From the NCBI RefSeq assembly GCF_009936275.1, contig NZ_AP019797.1, positions 983,501 to 1,047,500 on the forward strand: a DNA stretch of 64,000 nt, in the 5' to 3' direction. This DNA is from Rhodothermus marinus. GTDB lineage: Bacteria; Bacteroidota; Rhodothermia; Rhodothermales; Rhodothermaceae. This document shows, piece after piece, positions 46,140 through 52,570 of this stretch; position 1 is the stretch's first letter, and each line of letters begins with the position of its first letter. Under the pieces are notes generated by a model. It was not told the DNA's origin. It worked only from the letters and a program-made list of their open reading frames with translations, and ran no database searches. The position numbers and the translations under genes are program-made.

Positions 46140-46210
46140 ACGATTTGTGTACGTGCGCGGCCTCCCATGATATTCCGGAGATTTACTACAAACAGGCTTT
46201 GCTCGTAGTC

Positions 46211-46235
46211 CGGCACGGAGCGCAGCGGCGTGCCG
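46211..46235. repeat. REP-like palindrome 1
   Basis: CGGCACG and CGTGCCG arms enclose GAGCGCAGCGG-type sequence, preceded by CGTAGTC. It lies 125 bp before the first coiled-coil gene. Confidence 0.8.
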
Positions 46236-46359
46236 TTTCGGGTCACGCCCTTCAGGCTCCTGGAAGGGAGAGCAGTGCCGTGGGATGGGCGCTGGCCCGG
46301 GAACCTGTCGCACGCCTCCCGGAGTTTGCCTTTTCGCCCGGAGCCATACTTTTCCGCTC

Positions 46360-46863
46360 ATGGCGATTCTGACGGTCCCGAAAGTTTTGCGTGAAAAACT
46401 CGGTGACGAGGGCGTCGAGGCGCTGATCGCTTTGCTCAACGAAGCGGCCCATCACGAACGCAACAATCTGCTGGGCATTCTGGAAGAACGTTTTGAGCGG
46501 CGCGTAACCGAGGAAGGCAAGCGATTGGACAATCGCATCGCAGAGGAGGTTGCCAAACTGGACCGCCGGATCACGGAGGAGGTTGCCAGACTGGATCACC
46601 GGATCTCGGAGGAGGTTGCCAGACTGGACCGCCGGATCACGGAGGAGGTTGCCAGACTGGACCGCCGGATTACGGAGGAGGTAAAGCGGCTGGAGGTGTT
46701 GCTTGCCGAGACGGAGAAGCGACTGGATCACCGGATCACAGAGGAGGTGTCGCGGTTGGAGGTAGCGCTCAGCGAGCGGTATGCGAGTCTGGTGCGGTGG
46801 ATGTTCATTTTCTGGGCGGGGCAGATCGGGGTGCTCGTGGCGCTGTTCGCGCTGCTGCGATGA
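46360..46863 (+). CDS. Hendecad-repeat coiled-coil membrane protein, paralogue 1
   Basis: A 167-residue protein in three parts. Residues 1-45 (MAILTVPKVLREKLGDEGVE...) form a small head. Residues about 46-140 are a coiled-coil stalk of 11-residue repeats of the form RITEEVARLDR, encoded by 33-bp DNA repeats. The C-terminus LVRWMFIFWAGQIGVLVALFALLR is a membrane anchor. This head-stalk-anchor plan resembles the DUF1640/CCDC90 (MCUR1-related) family, which is an inference from layout. The ATG at 46360 is shared by all three paralogues; upstream frame extensions are leader. The role is unknown. Confidence 0.72.
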   Translation: MAILTVPKVLREKLGDEGVEALIALLNEAAHHERNNLLGILEERFERRVTEEGKRLDNRIAEEVAKLDRRITEEVARLDHRISEEVARLDRRITEEVARLDRRITEEVKRLEVLLAETEKRLDHRITEEVSRLEVALSERYASLVRWMFIFWAGQIGVLVALFALLR

Positions 46864-47216
46864 AGCGGAGAATTCGTTCAGACATGCGTATATGGGATTG
46901 CCGATTTACTGGTGCATGAGGGGGCCACATCCCATGTGCCCGTGCTTTCAGCCCAGAATAAGCGGCGCCAACCCCCAAAGCCCCGAACGACGGCGCCCCC
47001 ACCCAGCAGGCGCACCCTCCCCCTGGCCTCCTCCCTGGCAGGGAGGGGGAAGCACATGAGGAAAGACGGCGACGCTGAAACGCGCCCAGGCAACCGTTGC
47101 TACTGCCAGCTGTAGCCCACAGATCCTGCTCCCCCTTGCAGGGGGAGCTGTCGCGAAGCGACTGAGGGGGTCAAGGGATGCCGTGCACATGCACCATGAT
47201 TCTCGGAAAATCATAG
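46864..47216. other. Non-coding tail of unit 1
   Basis: This 353-bp gap has no credible gene. It begins with a truncated form of the dispersed repeat (GATTGCCGATTTACTGG at 46896), continues with a C-rich stretch containing a CCTCCCT-AGGGAGG hairpin near 47027-47047, and ends with the CTCCCCC element and ATGATTCTCGGAAAATCAT, itself a hairpin. Confidence 0.7.
47129..47170. repeat. CTCCCCC double-hairpin repeat, copy 1
   Basis: CTCCCCC pairs with GGGGGAG around TTGCA, then GTCGC pairs with GCGAC around GAA, and TGAGGGGG closes the element. It recurs at 48998 and 50830. Confidence 0.85.
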
Positions 47217-47998
47217 TAGAAGCCATCCGAAAAAGGTTCTCAAGAAGATCATGAGGCACCCGAGCAATACAAAACCCAGGTAGTTTTCCGCGTAGCGCTC
47301 ATGACGCATCACAATCCGGCGAAAATGCCCCAACCACGCAAACAACCGCTCTACTTTCCAACGGCGTCGATAGCGACGAAGCTTACGCCCATCCTGCGTC
47401 TTTTTCCGCTTCCGATTCCGCCGATGCGGGGCAATCATCTCTATACCCTGTTGCGCCAATGCCTTATCCAGCGGATCACTGTCATATGCCCGATCTCCAA
47501 TCAAACGTACTGGCCTGGCCTCGGTAAAACGAGCCGCCAGAGTGGCTTCGACCAACCGGGTCTCATGTGGCGAAGCACTGGCCACCAGCACCGCCAGCGG
47601 CATCCCATTGGCATCGGCTATCGCCATGAGTTTGCTTCCTTTACCTCGCTTTGTCTTGCCCACACACGTCCCCCCTTTTTAGCAGCGACAAAGCAGGCAT
47701 CGATAAAGCACTCCGAAAGCTTGAGCTTGCCCTGTTGGTGGAGTTCTTCGGCCAACACCTGCAAAATGCGTTGGAGGGTGCCGTTTCGGTTCCATGCTTG
47801 GAAGCGATCGTGGCAGGTGGACCTGGGCGGAAAGTGGGCGGGGAGCTTGGCCCAGGGAGCGCCGGTCTGGAGTATCCAGAGGATCGCTTCGAGGATCTCG
47901 CGGTCGGCGCGTCGGGGACGGCCGCGTCGATCAGGGCGTTTAGGAGGGGAGACGATCAGGGGCTCGATGCGTGCCCATTGTGCGTCGGTGAGTTTCAT
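47211..47998 (-). CDS. IS5-type transposase, two frames joined by -1 frameshift (copy 1)
   Basis: DDE transposase of the IS5 family, IS427-like group. The first frame (47998 to 47618) encodes [15 protein letters not shown] and the first catalytic aspartate in [12 protein letters not shown]. The second frame (to 47211) encodes [31 protein letters not shown] and [18 protein letters not shown], the remaining DDE motifs. An A5G6 run at 47670-47680 reads A-AAG-GGG-GGA in the first frame, a canonical -1 slip site, and the slipped frame joins directly to the second. In this copy the normal stop is changed from TGA to TGG, so the protein reads four codons further, past the element end. Confidence 0.9.
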
Positions 47999-48055
47999 GA
48001 GGCCGCTCCGATTATCGTGGCGATTACAGAGTATCCCTATTTTCCGGATAAGTTC
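47219..48055 (-). mobile_element. IS5-family insertion sequence, copy 1 (837 bp)
   Basis: The ends are imperfect inverted repeats: GAAGCCATCCGAAAAAGG on the left and GAACTTATCCGGAAAATAGG on the right read inward. TA flanks both sides, either a 2-bp target duplication or part of the repeat. An 837-bp copy at 60115-60951 has the same ends. This copy sits precisely between the two tandem units. Confidence 0.9.
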
Positions 48056-48079
48056 TACAAACAGGCTCTGCTCGTAGTC

Positions 48080-48104
48080 CGGCACGGAGCGCAGCGGCGT
48101 GCCG
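48080..48104. repeat. REP-like palindrome 2
   Basis: Same CGGCACG-CGTGCCG palindrome as at 46211, 125 bp before the second coiled-coil gene. Confidence 0.8.
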
Positions 48105-48228
48105 TTTCGGGTCACGCCCTTCAGGCCCCTGGAAGGGAGAGCAGTGCCGTGGGATGGGCGCTGGCCCGGGAACCTGTCGCACGCCTCCCGGAGTTTGCCT
48201 TTTCGCCCGGAGCCATCCTTTTCCGCTC

Positions 48229-48732
48229 ATGGCGATTCTGACGGTCCCGAAAGTTTTGCGTGAAAAACTCGGCGACGAGGGCGTCGAGGCGCTGATCGCT
48301 TTGCTCAACGAAGCGGCCCATCACGAACGCAACAATCTGCTGGGCATTCTGGAAGAACGTTTTGAGCGGCGCGTAACCGAGGAAGGCAAGCGATTGGACA
48401 ATCGCATCGCAGAGGAGGTTGCCAAACTGGACCGCCGGATCACGGAGGAGGTTGCCAGACTGGACCACCGGATCACGGAGGAGGTTGCCAAACTGGACCG
48501 CCGGATCACGGAGGAGGTTGCCAGACTGGACCGCCGGATTACGGAGGAGGTAAAGCGGCTGGAGGTGTTGCTTGCCGAGACGGAGAAGCGACTGGATCAC
48601 CGGATCACAGAGGAGGTGTCGCGGTTGGAGGTAGCGCTCAGCGAGCGGTATGCGAGTCTGGTGCGGTGGATGTTCATTTTCTGGGCGGGGCAGATCGGGG
48701 TGCTCGTGGCGCTGTTCGCGCTGCTGCGATGA
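48229..48732 (+). CDS. Hendecad-repeat coiled-coil membrane protein, paralogue 2
   Basis: A 167-residue protein almost identical to paralogue 1, with the same head, seven or so 11-residue stalk repeats and identical membrane anchor. Differences lie only in the stalk: for example the third and fourth repeats read RLDHRITEEVAKLDR instead of RLDHRISEEVARLDR. This suggests the repeat tract varies faster than the rest of the unit, or that the duplication is recent. Function unknown. Confidence 0.72.
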   Translation: MAILTVPKVLREKLGDEGVEALIALLNEAAHHERNNLLGILEERFERRVTEEGKRLDNRIAEEVAKLDRRITEEVARLDHRITEEVAKLDRRITEEVARLDRRITEEVKRLEVLLAETEKRLDHRITEEVSRLEVALSERYASLVRWMFIFWAGQIGVLVALFALLR

Positions 48733-49125
48733 AGCGGAGAATTCGTTCAGACATGCGTATATGGGATTGCCGATTTACTGGTGCATGAGGGGGCCACATC
48801 CCATGTGCCCGTGCTTTCAGCCCAGAATAAGCGGCGCCAACCCCCAAAGCCCCGAACGACGGCGCCCCCACCCAGCAGGCGCACCCTCCCCCTGGCCTCC
48901 TCCCTGGCAGGGAGGGGGAAGCACATGAGGAAAGACGGCGACGCTGAAACGCGCCCAGGCAACCGTTGCTACTGCCAGCTGTAGCCCACAGATCCTGCTC
49001 CCCCTTGCAGGGGGAGCTGTCGCGAAGCGACTGAGGGGGTCAAGGGATGCCGTGCACATGCACCATGATTCTCGGAAAATCATAGTAGTCAGAAACGAAG
49101 CGAAGCGCCGTCTCGGGGAGCGTCC
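48733..49125. other. Non-coding tail of unit 2 and junction
   Basis: The first 355 bp repeat the unit 1 tail. The last 38 bp (49088-49125) are unique sequence leading into the DUF4258 gene. No gene is seen. Confidence 0.7.
48998..49039. repeat. CTCCCCC double-hairpin repeat, copy 2
   Basis: Identical to the copy at 47129-47170, carried on tandem unit 2. Confidence 0.85.
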
Positions 49126-49365
49126 ATGTCCGCCTACGAATGCTCCGAACACGCCCGCGAGATGCTGCGGGAACGGAATATCCTGGAAGCATGGGTGAAA
49201 CGGGTACTGGAGGAGCCTGAAATAACCGAGTGGACGTTACACTACCTTCGGGCGATTGAAGAGTTTGACGGAAGGTATCTGCGGGTCGTAGTCAATCCGG
49301 AGGCAGTGCCACAACGTATCGTGACCGTCTTTTTTGATCGCAGGCTAAAGCGGAAGGAACGATGA
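49126..49365 (+). CDS. DUF4258-type small protein, possible toxin-like partner
   Basis: A 79-residue protein beginning MSAYECSEHAREMLRERNI, with EHA, WVKRVLEEPEITEW and a C-terminal VVVNPEAVPQRIVTVFFDRR. This matches the DUF4258 pattern of a conserved early histidine, arginine-rich helices and a beta-hairpin end; such proteins resemble RelE/BrnT-like folds. Its stop overlaps the next ATG by four bases. The gene pair is typical of DUF4258-DUF2283 modules, but toxin activity is unproven. It lies between repeat units, a common site for small mobile modules. Confidence 0.72.
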   Translation: MSAYECSEHAREMLRERNILEAWVKRVLEEPEITEWTLHYLRAIEEFDGRYLRVVVNPEAVPQRIVTVFFDRRLKRKER

Positions 49366-49562
49366 GACTGAAAGTGGACACGAAGAACGACGCCCTCTAC
49401 CTGCGCCTCGATGAGTCGGCGGTGGTGGAATCGGAGGAGGTGCGGCCGGGGATTATTCTGGATTACAACGCGGAGGATCAGGTGGTGGGCATCGAGATTC
49501 TGGGAATTCGGAAGCGGATCCCGGAACAGATGCTGAAGCGTCTGGAGTTCGAAACGCTCTGA
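49362..49562 (+). CDS. DUF2283 family protein, partner of the DUF4258 gene
   Basis: A 66-residue protein, MRLKVDTKNDALYLRLDES, with VRPGIILDYNAEDQVVGIEIL in the middle; both blocks are characteristic of DUF2283. The family is often encoded next to DUF4258 genes and may act as the antidote. Translation is coupled through an ATGA overlap. Confidence 0.82.
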   Translation: MRLKVDTKNDALYLRLDESAVVESEEVRPGIILDYNAEDQVVGIEILGIRKRIPEQMLKRLEFETL

Positions 49563-49877
49563 GCAGAAACAGGGGAGCAGCGGGGCATCATCGGCCGTCG
49601 CGTGCTGCCCCTGGGTGATGAAGGGTGTCGAGAAGTCGTCCGAAAAATCGTGTCGAAAAGGTTCGCGCTTGCGACCTGCATAGCGTTTCGCTGAGTTTTA
49701 TAGCCTGTCGTTTGCAGCACGAACAATGCGCTTGTAGTCCGGCACGGAGCGCAGCGGCGTGCCGTCCCGAGTAACGCCCTTCAGGCTCAGCGGTGCTGCG
49801 GGATGGGCGCTGGCCCGGGAACCTATCGCACGCCTCCCGGAGTTTGCCTTTTCGCCCGGAGCCATCCTTTTCCGCTC
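49563..49877. other. Gap before paralogue 3
   Basis: Contains the third REP-like palindrome and a leader closely matching those before paralogues 1 and 2 (from CTTGTAGTCC onward). The leader has a short deletion after TTCAGGCT and otherwise differs by single bases. The first 160 bp are unique and show no gene. Confidence 0.6.
49740..49764. repeat. REP-like palindrome 3
   Basis: CGGCACG-CGTGCCG palindrome preceded by TGTAGTC, 114 bp before paralogue 3. Confidence 0.8.
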
Positions 49878-50402
49878 ATGGCGATTCTGACGGTCCCGAA
49901 AGTTTTGCGCGAAAAGCTCGGCGACGAGGGCGTCGAGGCGCTGATCGCTTTGCTCAACGAAGCGGCCCATCACGAACGCAACAATCTGCTGGGCATTCTG
50001 GAAGAACGTTTTGAGCGGCGCGTAACCGAGGAAGGCAAGCGATTGGACAATCGCATCGCAGAGGAGATTGCCAGACTGGACCGCCGGATCACGGAGGAGG
50101 TTGCCAGACTGGACCACCGGATCACGGAGGAGGTAAAGCGGCTGGAGGTGTTGCTTGCCGAGACGGAGAAGCGACTGGATCACCGGATCACGGAGGAGGT
50201 AAAGCGGCTGGAGGTGTTGCTTGCCGAAACGGAAAAGCGACTGGATCACCGGATCACGGAGGAAGTTGCCAAACTGGACCGTCGGATCGCAGAGGTGCAG
50301 GTAGCGCTCAGTGAACGGTATGCGAGTCTGGTGCGGTGGATGTTCATTTTCTGGGCGGGGCAGATCGGGGTGATCGTGGCGCTGTTCGCGCTGCTGCGGT
50401 GA
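49878..50402 (+). CDS. Hendecad-repeat coiled-coil membrane protein, paralogue 3
   Basis: A 174-residue paralogue with the same head and nearly the same anchor (one Val-to-Ile change, GQIGVIVALF). The stalk is rearranged: after two RITEEVARLD-type units, a 22-residue block KRLEVLLAETEKRLDHRITEEV occurs twice in tandem, where paralogues 1 and 2 have it once, and the junction to VALSERY differs (RRIAEVQVALSERY). This shows in-frame expansion and shuffling of the 33-bp repeats. Function unknown. Confidence 0.72.
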   Translation: MAILTVPKVLREKLGDEGVEALIALLNEAAHHERNNLLGILEERFERRVTEEGKRLDNRIAEEIARLDRRITEEVARLDHRITEEVKRLEVLLAETEKRLDHRITEEVKRLEVLLAETEKRLDHRITEEVAKLDRRIAEVQVALSERYASLVRWMFIFWAGQIGVIVALFALLR

Positions 50403-50508
50403 AGCGGGACTTCGTTCAGACGCGTGCAACTGCGTATAGGGGATTGCCGATTTACCGGTGCATGAGGAGGCCGCAGCCCTACTACGACTACGAGACCTTT
50501 CATCATAG

Positions 50509-50650
50509 GATTGCCGATTTACCGGTGCATGAGGAGGCCACACCCCGTGTGGCGGACGTGATCCGGCGGGTATGACAGGGCGGACATGCAGGACAGGGAA
50601 AACGTCAGGGATCTGGTAGGGGCGCACCGTCGTGTGCGCCCGTGCTTCCA
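50509..50650 (+). repeat. Dispersed intergenic repeat, copy 2
   Basis: Plus-strand counterpart of 36674-36827. A 29-bp piece of its beginning also occurs at 50442, and shorter derivatives at 46896 and 48765. Confidence 0.75.
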
Positions 50651-50829
50651 GCCCGAAATGAGCGGCGCCAACCACCAACGGCAGCTGCCCGAACGTCGGC
50701 GCCAGAGACCGGCAGGGCCACCCTCCTTTTGACCCCTGGCAGGGAAGGGGAAGCACCCGAGAGAAAGCCTCGACGCTGAGACGCGCACGGGCGCCTGCCG
50801 CCACCGCCGGCCGTGGCCCGTAAACACCG

Positions 50830-50871
50830 CTCCCCCTTGCAGGGGGAGCTGTCGCGAAGCGACTGAGGGGG
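50830..50871. repeat. CTCCCCC double-hairpin repeat, copy 3
   Basis: Same element as at 47129 and 48998, here followed by GCATGGGAGGCCGTGCAC, a sequence also related to the flanks of the other copies. Confidence 0.85.
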
Positions 50872-50939
50872 CATGGGAGGCCGTGCACAGGCCCCATGAT
50901 ATTCCGGAGATTTACTACCAACAGGCTCCGCTTGTAGTC

Positions 50940-50964
50940 CGGCACGAAGCGCAGCGGCGTGCCG
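50940..50964. repeat. REP-like palindrome 4
   Basis: CGGCACG-CGTGCCG palindrome, with GAAGCGCAG in the loop instead of GAGCGCAG-type sequence. Confidence 0.8.
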
Positions 50965-51028
50965 TTTCGGGTGACGCCACTCCGGCTGGCGCCTTCGTGG
51001 CTTACTACAAACAGGTCTGTTCGTAGTC

Positions 51029-51053
51029 CGGCACGAAGCGCAGCGGCGTGCCG
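51029..51053. repeat. REP-like palindrome 5
   Basis: Fifth copy, 89 bp after copy 4, with the surrounding sequence (ACTACAAACAG, GCCACTC, GCCTTCGTGGC) also repeated. Confidence 0.8.
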
Positions 51054-51238
51054 TTTGGGGGAACGCCACTCGGCTTCGCCTTCGTGGCGCACGGCAAACC
51101 CGTGCCACTTGGCACAAAGGGCCGGGAGCGCGGCGGGGCGATTCGGAAAGAATGCCCGTCCGGTCCGGCAGCATTTGCCGCGGGTGCGTGGGATTCCGGT
51201 GAAATGAACCGCGGGACTTTCCTTCTCGGTCGTGATGT

Positions 51239-51282
51239 TATAACTTTCAGCCCGTCGGGTCCGATCTTTGTTTACGGACCCG
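51239..51282 (+). promoter_or_regulatory. Candidate -10 element and leader hairpin before wzz
   Basis: TATAAC at 51239 may be a -10 box, without a good -35. Shortly after the predicted start, CGGGTCCG at 51256 pairs perfectly with CGGACCCG at 51275 over 11 bases. The hairpin would sit at the very 5' end of the operon mRNA. Confidence 0.35.
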
Positions 51283-51319
51283 CACCGGATCGAGCAGGCG
51301 TCCCCGACCACGCAGACGC

Positions 51320-52570
51320 ATGTCCGACGCATCGCAGCAGGAACGACAGCCTTCCGCCACCCCGCCGGCTCCGCCGCCGGGGTGGTCGTACTACGGCCCG
51401 CCGGAGGACGACGAGATCTCGTTGCTGGATCTGGGCGTGGTGATCGCCCGCCAGCGGCGCGTGATCGTCGTGAGCGTGCTGGTGGCGCTCGTGCTGGGAG
51501 TGGTCGTAGCGCTGTTGTCGCCGAAGTCCTACGTGGCCGAGGCGAAGCTGGCGCCCAGCAGCACGGGCTCCACGGGCGGGGCGCTTTCGGCGCTGCGGTC
51601 GTTCGGACTGTCGCTGGGCGAGGGCGAGATCGTCAGTCCGAGCGTCTATCCCGACATCGTGGGGAGCCCGGATTTTCTGCTGGCGCTGGCGCGCGACACG
51701 TTCTACATCGCCGAAGAAGGCCGGCCCATGACGCTGGTCGAGTACTACGGCCGGCGGAGCTGGCTGTCGTATCTGAATCCGCTTGGCTGGCTGCGAAGCC
51801 TGCTCGGCGGTGGCGAAGAGGCGCCGGTGCGGGACCTCTACTCGGGTGCGCTGATTCTCCCGACGGAAGAGGAATACACGGCGATCCGGGCGCTTCGTGA
51901 GGTGCTCAGTGCTTCGGAGAAGGCGGGTGGCGGGTTGTTGAAGGAAGGGCCCGGAATGATCACGGTGCGGGCCGAGACGGAGGACCCGTATCTTTCGGCG
52001 GCGATCGTGGAGCGGGCCATCCGGCACCTGCAGGCGGCGATCAACCGGATCAAGACCGAGAAGGCGCGGCAGGACCTGGAGTTTCTGGAGCGGAAGTTCG
52101 CGCAGGTGGAGGCCGAGCTGCGGCAGGCCGAGAACGAGCTGGCGCGATTTCTGGATGCGAACCGCAATCCGCAGACGGCCCAGCTCCGGGCCGAGATGGA
52201 GCGGCTGCAGCGGCAGGTGAGCTTCAAGGAGCAGCTCTACCGCGAGATCCAGTTGCAGAAGACGCAGGCCGAGATCCAGGTGCAGAAGGAGGCGCCGGTG
52301 CTGAGCATCGTGCAGCCGCCCGTGCCTCCTGACCAGCCTTCGGGCACGAGCCGCAAGCTGATCGTGCTGTTGTTTCTGTTTCTGGGGGTGTTCGTGGGGC
52401 TGGGGCTGGCTTTCGTGAACCACTGGCTTTCGCGTCCGCCCTCGGACGACGAAGAGCGCCGGAAGGTCGAAGAAGTCCGTGCGCTTTTCCGTCCTGCCAC
52501 CTGGTGGGGCGAGGTAAAGGCGCTGGTGAACGGACGGAGTCGCACGGAGGAAAGGGAACGTCCCCGGTGA
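51320..52570 (+). CDS. Wzz-type polysaccharide chain-length determinant
   Basis: Inner-membrane polysaccharide co-polymerase controlling chain length. The 416 residues have a proline-rich cytosolic N-terminus, then ISLLDLGVVIARQRRVIVVSVLV leading into the first membrane helix (about 47-67) and the Wzz motif region SPKSYVAEAKLAP. A long helical periplasmic part covers about 200-320, and a second helix (about 346-366, LIVLLFLFLGVFVGLGLAF) returns to the cytosol. There is no tyrosine-kinase domain. It opens the polysaccharide operon. Confidence 0.88.
   Translation: MSDASQQERQPSATPPAPPPGWSYYGPPEDDEISLLDLGVVIARQRRVIVVSVLVALVLGVVVALLSPKSYVAEAKLAPSSTGSTGGALSALRSFGLSLGEGEIVSPSVYPDIVGSPDFLLALARDTFYIAEEGRPMTLVEYYGRRSWLSYLNPLGWLRSLLGGGEEAPVRDLYSGALILPTEEEYTAIRALREVLSASEKAGGGLLKEGPGMITVRAETEDPYLSAAIVERAIRHLQAAINRIKTEKARQDLEFLERKFAQVEAELRQAENELARFLDANRNPQTAQLRAEMERLQRQVSFKEQLYREIQLQKTQAEIQVQKEAPVLSIVQPPVPPDQPSGTSRKLIVLLFLFLGVFVGLGLAFVNHWLSRPPSDDEERRKVEEVRALFRPATWWGEVKALVNGRSRTEERERPR

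What the first reader, a model, noticed from the sequence alone, without database searches (positions are those of the whole stretch)
49878..50402. In-frame expansion and shuffling of 33-bp repeats in paralogue 3
Paralogues 1 and 2 have one KRLEVLLAETEKRLDHRITEEV block; paralogue 3 has it twice in tandem and a different junction before VALSERY. All changes keep the frame, as expected of a variable-length tract under selection for a continuous coiled coil.
Basis: seen in the sequence. Interest (0 to 1): 0.6.

Follow-up and report, generated by a model that had tools for sequence, protein, structure and literature searches.

The report
Variable-length coiled-coil rods in Rhodothermus
The gene belongs to a family of scattered genes that encode helical rods with a membrane anchor, whose middle part grows and shrinks mostly in 11-residue steps and appears to be exchanged between copies; this is a new case of a known kind of gene variation, and what the rods do is unknown.

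Summary
The third paralogue (49878-50402, 174 aa) has the 22-residue block twice in tandem (64/66 bp identical), the other two once, and its junction before VALSERY differs. The net change is +21 bp, not a multiple of 33: P3 also has two fewer 33-bp units and a junction 7 residues longer. Two searches find 12 members (NCBIfam LA_3696 N-terminal domain) in this 3.43-Mb Rhodothermus genome. Each has a near-constant 49-residue head, a tract of 11-residue repeats (52-158 residues in 38 measured genus members) and a C-terminal hydrophobic anchor of one of two types. At 12 loci matched by flanking DNA, tract length differs at 10; 17 of 18 length steps are 0, 4 or 7 modulo 11 and 12 of 18 are multiples of 11, as expected if whole helical turns are gained or lost. 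The window copies look like mosaics: their 5' part is identical or nearly so to another locus, so recombination between paralogues, besides repeat gain, best explains the junction. The closest parallel I read is the Mycoplasma pneumoniae RepMP1/DUF16 family. Variation within a population could not be tested, and the cellular function is unknown.

The parts
49878..50402 (+). Paralogue 3 (P3), 174 aa: head, hendecad tract, C-terminal anchor
   Evidence: NF047472 63.8 bits against cut-off 32; AF2 helix 8-173
49878..50024 (+). P3 head, residues 1-49, LA_3696 N-terminal domain
   Evidence: NF047472 matches residues 3-52, E 9.8e-18
50025..50333 (+). P3 variable tract, 103 residues
50127..50192 (+). 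First copy of the tandem 66-bp unit in P3
   Evidence: 64/66 identical to the next 66 bp; TRF period 66
50193..50258 (+). Second copy of the tandem 66-bp unit in P3
50334..50402 (+). P3 C-terminal hydrophobic anchor (RWMFIFWAGQIG...) and stop
   Evidence: RWMF and following residues near-invariant in alignments A1 and A2; membrane helix is read from the sequence, no predictor was run
49812..49877 (+). Upstream 66 bp shared with other copies
   Evidence: 66/66 identical to the upstream of locus F in G004 (L066)
46360..46863 (+). Paralogue 1 (P1), 167 aa, same family
48229..48732 (+). Paralogue 2 (P2), 167 aa, same family
46186..47219 (+). Duplicated block holding P1
   Evidence: 7 mismatches to 48055-49088 at offset 1869
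48055..49088 (+). Duplicated block holding P2
47211..48115 (-). Insertion-sequence transposase in two overlapping frames between the two blocks (DDE_Tnp_1 in 47211-47663); element ends judged by eye, about 47220-48051

Best explanation
P3 encodes a tail-anchored helical rod: a conserved head of about 49 residues, a coiled coil of 11-residue (hendecad) repeats, and one hydrophobic helix at the very C-terminus. Head and rod probably lie in the cytoplasm (inferred from the tail position of the only hydrophobic stretch; no topology or signal-peptide predictor was run). The DNA of the tract changes in two ways: gain or loss of 33-bp units or multiples inside a gene, by slippage or unequal recombination, and recombination with other dispersed members that share nearly identical ends. 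Selection removes changes that break the helix core, so what survives are steps of whole helical turns (mostly multiples of 11 residues, sometimes 4, 7 or 15). Shown: repeat structure, copy number, length steps, excess of synonymous changes in head and anchor. Supported but not proven: mosaicism through recombination. Inferred: coiled-coil oligomer, topology, molecular route. Most likely role, a guess: a membrane-tethered spacer or scaffold whose exact length is loosely constrained.
For: 12 members in G000, all over the NF047472 cut-off. Tract lengths of 38 measured genus members fall in five of eleven classes modulo 11, 31 of 38 in two of them. Length steps: 17 of 18 in {0,4,7} mod 11 and 12 of 18 multiples of 11, binomial about 3e-9 each against 3/11 and 1/11 (steps are sorted differences within loci, so only roughly independent, and locus W includes the three window paralogues). 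The best path of 3- and 4-spaced positions scores 0.79 on average for hydrophobicity against 0.36 (sd 0.09) in shuffled tracts. 277 units picked by a rule that asks for hydrophobic residues at positions 4 and 8 tile 3047 of 3601 tract residues. AF2: one helix 8-173, mean pLDDT 90.3. DNA identity at the repeat lag (best of 33, 54, 66) exceeds synonymous recoding by z>2 in 26 of 38 genes. P3: six successive 66-bp windows from 49812 to 50042 are 66/66 identical to locus F of G004 (two of them tied with other loci), the tract end 50109-50339 is closest to locus J of G005 at 55-62/66 in five of the seven or more windows and never nearer to F there until the anchor. At locus B the G003 copy (L086) has the other anchor type and another tract than its syntenic G000, G004 and G005 partners. 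Head: 73 synonymous against 11 nonsynonymous changes, anchor 26 against 6, in 13 orthologue pairs outside the window locus (summed by hand; pairs share members).
Against: The AF2 model is a monomer, pTM 0.49, and says nothing on oligomer state. 12 of 38 tracts show no z>2 excess of DNA repeat identity, five of them below expectation. Three of seven G000/G004 loci have equal tract lengths. One of 18 steps (14 residues) is outside the strict set. Inside the tract purifying selection is less clear: synonymous:nonsynonymous 4:5 at locus G, 0:2 at E, 0:0 at F, 27:4 at B. Window-locus pairs carry more nonsynonymous head changes (14:5, 12:5, 13:8). The J-like windows of P3 are only 55-62/66 identical, so no sampled copy is the direct donor, and a dispersed duplication from locus F followed by change is not excluded. 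No expression, localisation or interaction data.
Confidence: 0.7

Rival explanations
1. Neutral drift in length: the rod needs only to be continuous; repeat number wanders by slippage and recombination and has no function of its own. This is compatible with the mechanism above and differs only on whether length matters.
For: Orthologues differ widely (locus K 140 against 74 residues; H 140, 107, 74, 52); relatives in other phyla range from almost no tract (104-aa frame, L109) to a long one (216-aa frame, L104).
Against: Twelve copies are kept with conserved head and anchor; loci F and G keep their length between G000 and G004.
Confidence: 0.5
2. Adaptive diversification: the family is a reservoir that generates rods of different length or pairing specificity, as in size- or phase-variable surface proteins.
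For: Many copies, constant ends, mosaic middles, and presence or absence of copies between close genomes.
Against: Probably cytoplasmic, so no immune or phage-receptor pressure is obvious; change within a population was not testable.
Confidence: 0.15
3. The 11-mers form a lipid-binding amphipathic helix as in apolipoproteins, not a coiled coil.
For: PF01442 (apolipoprotein) matches 28 of 33 members at E<=0.001, best 1.8e-18.
Against: P1-P3 score 20.4-27.1 bits against a cut-off of 90; in the units positions 3, 5, 7 and 10 are charged in 94, 83, 72 and 82%, leaving a narrow hydrophobic stripe (positions 4 and 8 are hydrophobic by the rule used to pick the units).
Confidence: 0.1
4. Fixed-length molecular ruler.
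For: Continuous helix.
Against: Length differs at 10 of 12 matched loci.
Confidence: 0.04
5. Assembly artefact of repeated sequence.
For: P1 and P2 blocks are 99% identical around an insertion sequence.
Against: P1 and P2 differ at 7 sites in 1034 bp; the genome is one contig listed as 100% complete, 0% contaminated; comparable tracts occur in five other genomes.
Confidence: 0.03

Closest known systems
Mycoplasma pneumoniae RepMP1 / DUF16 genes (PMC3472980, passages seen)
   Same: Dispersed multi-copy genes with a conserved proximal core and a distal coiled coil of tandem repeats; strain-to-strain gain and loss of whole coiled-coil units; a hybrid gene by recombination between copies; function unassigned.
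   Different: There the unit is 21 nt (heptad), here 33 nt (hendecad). No sequence membership: DUF16 is not among the Pfam matches listed for P1-P3. In all 12 G000 members here the C-terminal anchor is also nearly constant.
NCBIfam NF047472, LA_3696 family
   Same: All 12 copies found match the N-terminal domain over the curated cut-off.
   Different: One paper search for LA_3696 gave a single unrelated hit. The model covers the N-terminal domain only; the variable tract and the expansion to 12 copies are not part of it.
CCDC90-like / DUF1640 (MCUR1 family), head-neck-stalk-anchor proteins (Adlakha 2019, architecture recalled; seen only as a reference entry in PMC7519068)
   Same: Coiled coil followed by a C-terminal membrane helix; some members of the present family pass PF07798 when stretches are summed.
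   Different: P1-P3 stay below the cut-off and the match covers stalk and anchor only; a profile comparison with three DUF1640-like relatives aligns 28 anchor columns at 3.5% probability.
Trimeric autotransporter adhesins of Brucellaceae (PMC7688925, passages seen)
   Same: Paralogues of different length explained by duplication and recombination.
   Different: Surface-exposed adhesins; no sequence comparison was made here.

Membership tests
NF047472 LA_3696 family | N-terminal domain over the curated cut-off of 32 bits | tested here: met
   P1-P3 63.8-63.9 bits; 12 of 12 genome copies found are over the cut-off
PF07798 CCDC90-like | Whole-protein score of at least 33.5 bits | tested here: not met
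   P3 13.3, P1 24.9, P2 23.5 bits. Other members: some over the cut-off with neighbouring stretches summed, e.g. loci A and E of G000; 20 of 33 match at E<=0.001
PF07798 CCDC90-like | Homologous head-neck at the N-terminus | tested here: inconclusive
   hhalign aligns only anchor columns 145-172, probability 3.5%; the comparison alignment holds three sequences, one of them below the PF07798 cut-off
PF07798 CCDC90-like | Trimeric coiled coil (recalled) | not testable with these tools
   Only monomer prediction available
RepMP1/DUF16 (M. pneumoniae) | DUF16 sequence match | tested here: not met
   Not among the 21, 18 and 20 Pfam families listed for P3, P1 and P2 at E<=1
RepMP1/DUF16-like mode of variation | Constant core, whole-unit coiled-coil indels, recombination among dispersed copies | tested here: met
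   at species level only; the recombination part rests on window similarity, not on observed events
PF01442 apolipoprotein | Score of at least 90 bits | tested here: not met
   P3 20.4, P1 25.4, P2 27.1 bits

The most novel reading that the evidence does not exclude
Rhodothermus keeps a recombining set of up to twelve tail-anchored rods as a generator of stalk diversity inside the cell: constant head and anchor, exchangeable hendecad modules, with permitted changes counted in whole helical turns, so that each lineage carries a different collection of rod lengths and pairing specificities.
Probability: 0.2. Interest if true: 0.65.

Novelty: new variant of a known kind. Interest (0 to 1): 0.42.

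Why it matters
It is a natural experiment on what length changes a coiled coil tolerates. In the review PMC5082667 (passages seen) coiled-coil regions are said to vary in length 3.6 times less than other regions on average; here the coiled coil is the length-variable part while the ends stay fixed, and the accepted steps show the helical turn directly. It also offers a bacterial system, in a thermophile, for studying module exchange between coiled-coil paralogues.

Tried and rejected
A partner gene: open frames around 16 loci (9 in G000, 7 in G004 and G005) were listed; by eye they differ from locus to locus and no common partner was seen, but the neighbours were not searched against family libraries except those. 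A mobile element as present carrier: copies sit at matched places in several species, though locus I and J copies are missing from G004 with 18 and 5 bp between the flanks, and locus D in G000 is replaced by 724 bp without a family match, so copies are gained or lost. Matches to ZorA, DISARM, S18 and others are judged coiled-coil resemblance because they lie far below the cut-offs and cover the tract. The PDB sequence search gave nothing better than E 3e-4, apolipoprotein A-IV. No fold search was run, because the model is one helix. Paper searches: LA_3696 (one unrelated hit); CCDC90, hendecad and DUF1640 terms (20, 20 and 17 rows listed of 3069, 26 and 17); Rhodothermus terms (20 and 12 rows of 266 and 6205); M protein size variation (12 of 25). 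No listed row is about this family; unlisted rows were not seen.

Dropped rows: one search finds 40 genus members by HMM. One (L085) was not picked up by the motif script; L089 is cut by a contig end; 38 were measured. L087 lacks its N-terminus but its tract was counted. L079, L082 and L087 have no syntenic partner and are not in the 18 steps. Loci I, J, K and the G005 partner of the window locus match mainly or only on one flank. In one search the lag shown is the one of three with the highest identity.

Full report
What is there. The window lies in a single-contig genome of 3,430,829 bp. The genus is Rhodothermus: the same-genus genome G005 has contigs C25 and C46 of 26,404 and 14,652 bases, the numbers and lengths of records WFPM01000025.1 and WFPM01000046.1 of Rhodothermus sp. 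S012_61. The frame at 49878-50402 encodes 174 residues; its neighbours at 46360-46863 and 48229-48732 encode 167 each. The 22-residue block is single in P1 and P2 and tandem in P3, the two DNA copies being 64/66 identical. P3 differs net by +21 bp, because it also has two fewer 33-bp units and a junction 7 residues longer.

A twelve-member family. A search with P3 and a search with the NCBIfam model NF047472 agree on 12 members in the genome (sequences). The first 49 residues are nearly constant, the C-terminal anchor comes in two related types, and the middle is made of 11-residue units. Among 60 genomes, G000 included, 6 have the family, all of the genus; the seventh, G001, has none (one search lists 7 genus members). 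Among 394 genomes drawn from the phylum 4 have it, again all in the genus. Scattered relatives occur in records titled Tectomicrobia, Acidobacteria, Chrysopegis, Armatimonadota and Deltaproteobacteria. Of seven such genomes outside Rhodothermus searched with the model, five match, with one or two copies each (one of these copies below the cut-off), and two do not. Their tracts run from nearly none to long.

Length changes. Flanking DNA, on one or both sides, defines 12 loci shared by at least two species. Tract length differs at 10 of them and is equal at two (F, G). Between the closest pair, G000 and G004, 4 of 7 shared loci differ (A, B, H, W) and 3 agree (E, F, G). Of 18 length steps, 12 are multiples of 11 and 17 are 0, 4 or 7 modulo 11, against chance rates of 1/11 and 3/11 (about 3e-9 each; steps only roughly independent). 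Multiples of 7 are not in excess (3 of 18, p 0.49). In silico removal of pieces of 1-22 residues hurts the 3/4-spaced hydrophobic core least at 7, 4 and 11 residues and most at 17, 13 and 20.

How the tract changes. DNA identity at the repeat lag is higher than random synonymous recoding gives in 26 of 38 genes (z>2), and not in 12: many duplications look recent at the DNA level. The window copies look like mosaics. In P3 six successive windows from 49812 to 50042 (upstream and head) are 66/66 identical to locus F of G004, two of them tied with other loci; further upstream the closest are the single W copy of G004 and locus D; the second half of the tract is closest to locus J of G005 (55-62 of 66); the anchor windows are closest to D, then to W and F in a tie, then to F. 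P1 and P2 carry an F-like junction (EEVSRLEV), P3 a junction of the type RIAEV-VALSERY that several other members have. So the different junction is best read as recombination between paralogues; since no sampled copy is identical over the J-like part, the donor is not known, and a dispersed duplication followed by change remains possible. At locus B the G003 copy has the other anchor type than its syntenic partners, which also points to exchange or replacement. At the window locus G004, matched on both flanks, and G005, matched downstream, have one copy; G000 has three. P1 and P2 lie in a block of 1034 bp duplicated with 7 mismatches, with an insertion sequence between.

The protein. AF2 with 33 relatives gives one helix from residue 8 to 173, mean pLDDT 90.3, pTM 0.49. 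Synonymous changes dominate: 73 to 11 in the head and 26 to 6 in the anchor over 13 orthologue pairs outside the window locus; window-locus pairs show 14:5, 12:5 and 13:8 in the head. In the tract of equal-length pairs the counts are 0:0, 4:5, 0:2 and 27:4, so constraint there is less clear. Neighbouring frames vary at the 16 loci listed. Coiled coil, cytoplasmic location and oligomer are inferred.

Known or new. The nearest mode of variation in print that I saw is RepMP1/DUF16 in Mycoplasma pneumoniae (passages): constant core, tandem coiled-coil units gained and lost, a hybrid gene. The present family works like that but is not a member. The CCDC90-like family shares the layout, but P1-P3 fail its cut-off and no alignment of the heads was obtained; some other members pass the cut-off. 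I therefore file it as LA_3696 family by sequence and as a new variant of a known kind of variation. What the rods do remains open; a membrane-tethered spacer with loosely constrained length is my best guess.

Noticed in passing
47211-48115 (-): Insertion sequence with a DDE transposase split in two overlapping frames, lying between two copies of a duplicated 1-kb block, with imperfect inverted ends (seen by eye).
   Followed up: partly
49126-49365 and 49362-49562 (+): Overlapping DUF4258 and DUF2283 genes next to the family gene; DNA of this stretch also follows the single copy in G004.
   Followed up: partly
50521-50647 and elsewhere in G000: A dispersed repeat of about 160 bp with at least 42 matches in the genome (40 of 68 candidates scored); three lie within about 120 bp of family genes, one of these being the query itself.
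   Followed up: partly
49632-49778 and elsewhere in G000: A second dispersed repeat of about 236 bp with at least 39 full or partial matches (40 of 64 candidates scored), also beside the family gene of L027 (the query) and, in part, upstream of P1-P3.
   Followed up: partly
50912-51088: Tandem duplication of an 89-bp unit; its sequence resembles the stretch upstream of the paralogues by eye.
   Followed up: no
L069:3716-4408 (G004, locus E): The orthologue in G004 starts with TTG where its partners have ATG.
   Followed up: no
49698-51332 (-): A 544-aa open frame antisense to P3, probably a by-product of repeat and base composition.
   Followed up: no
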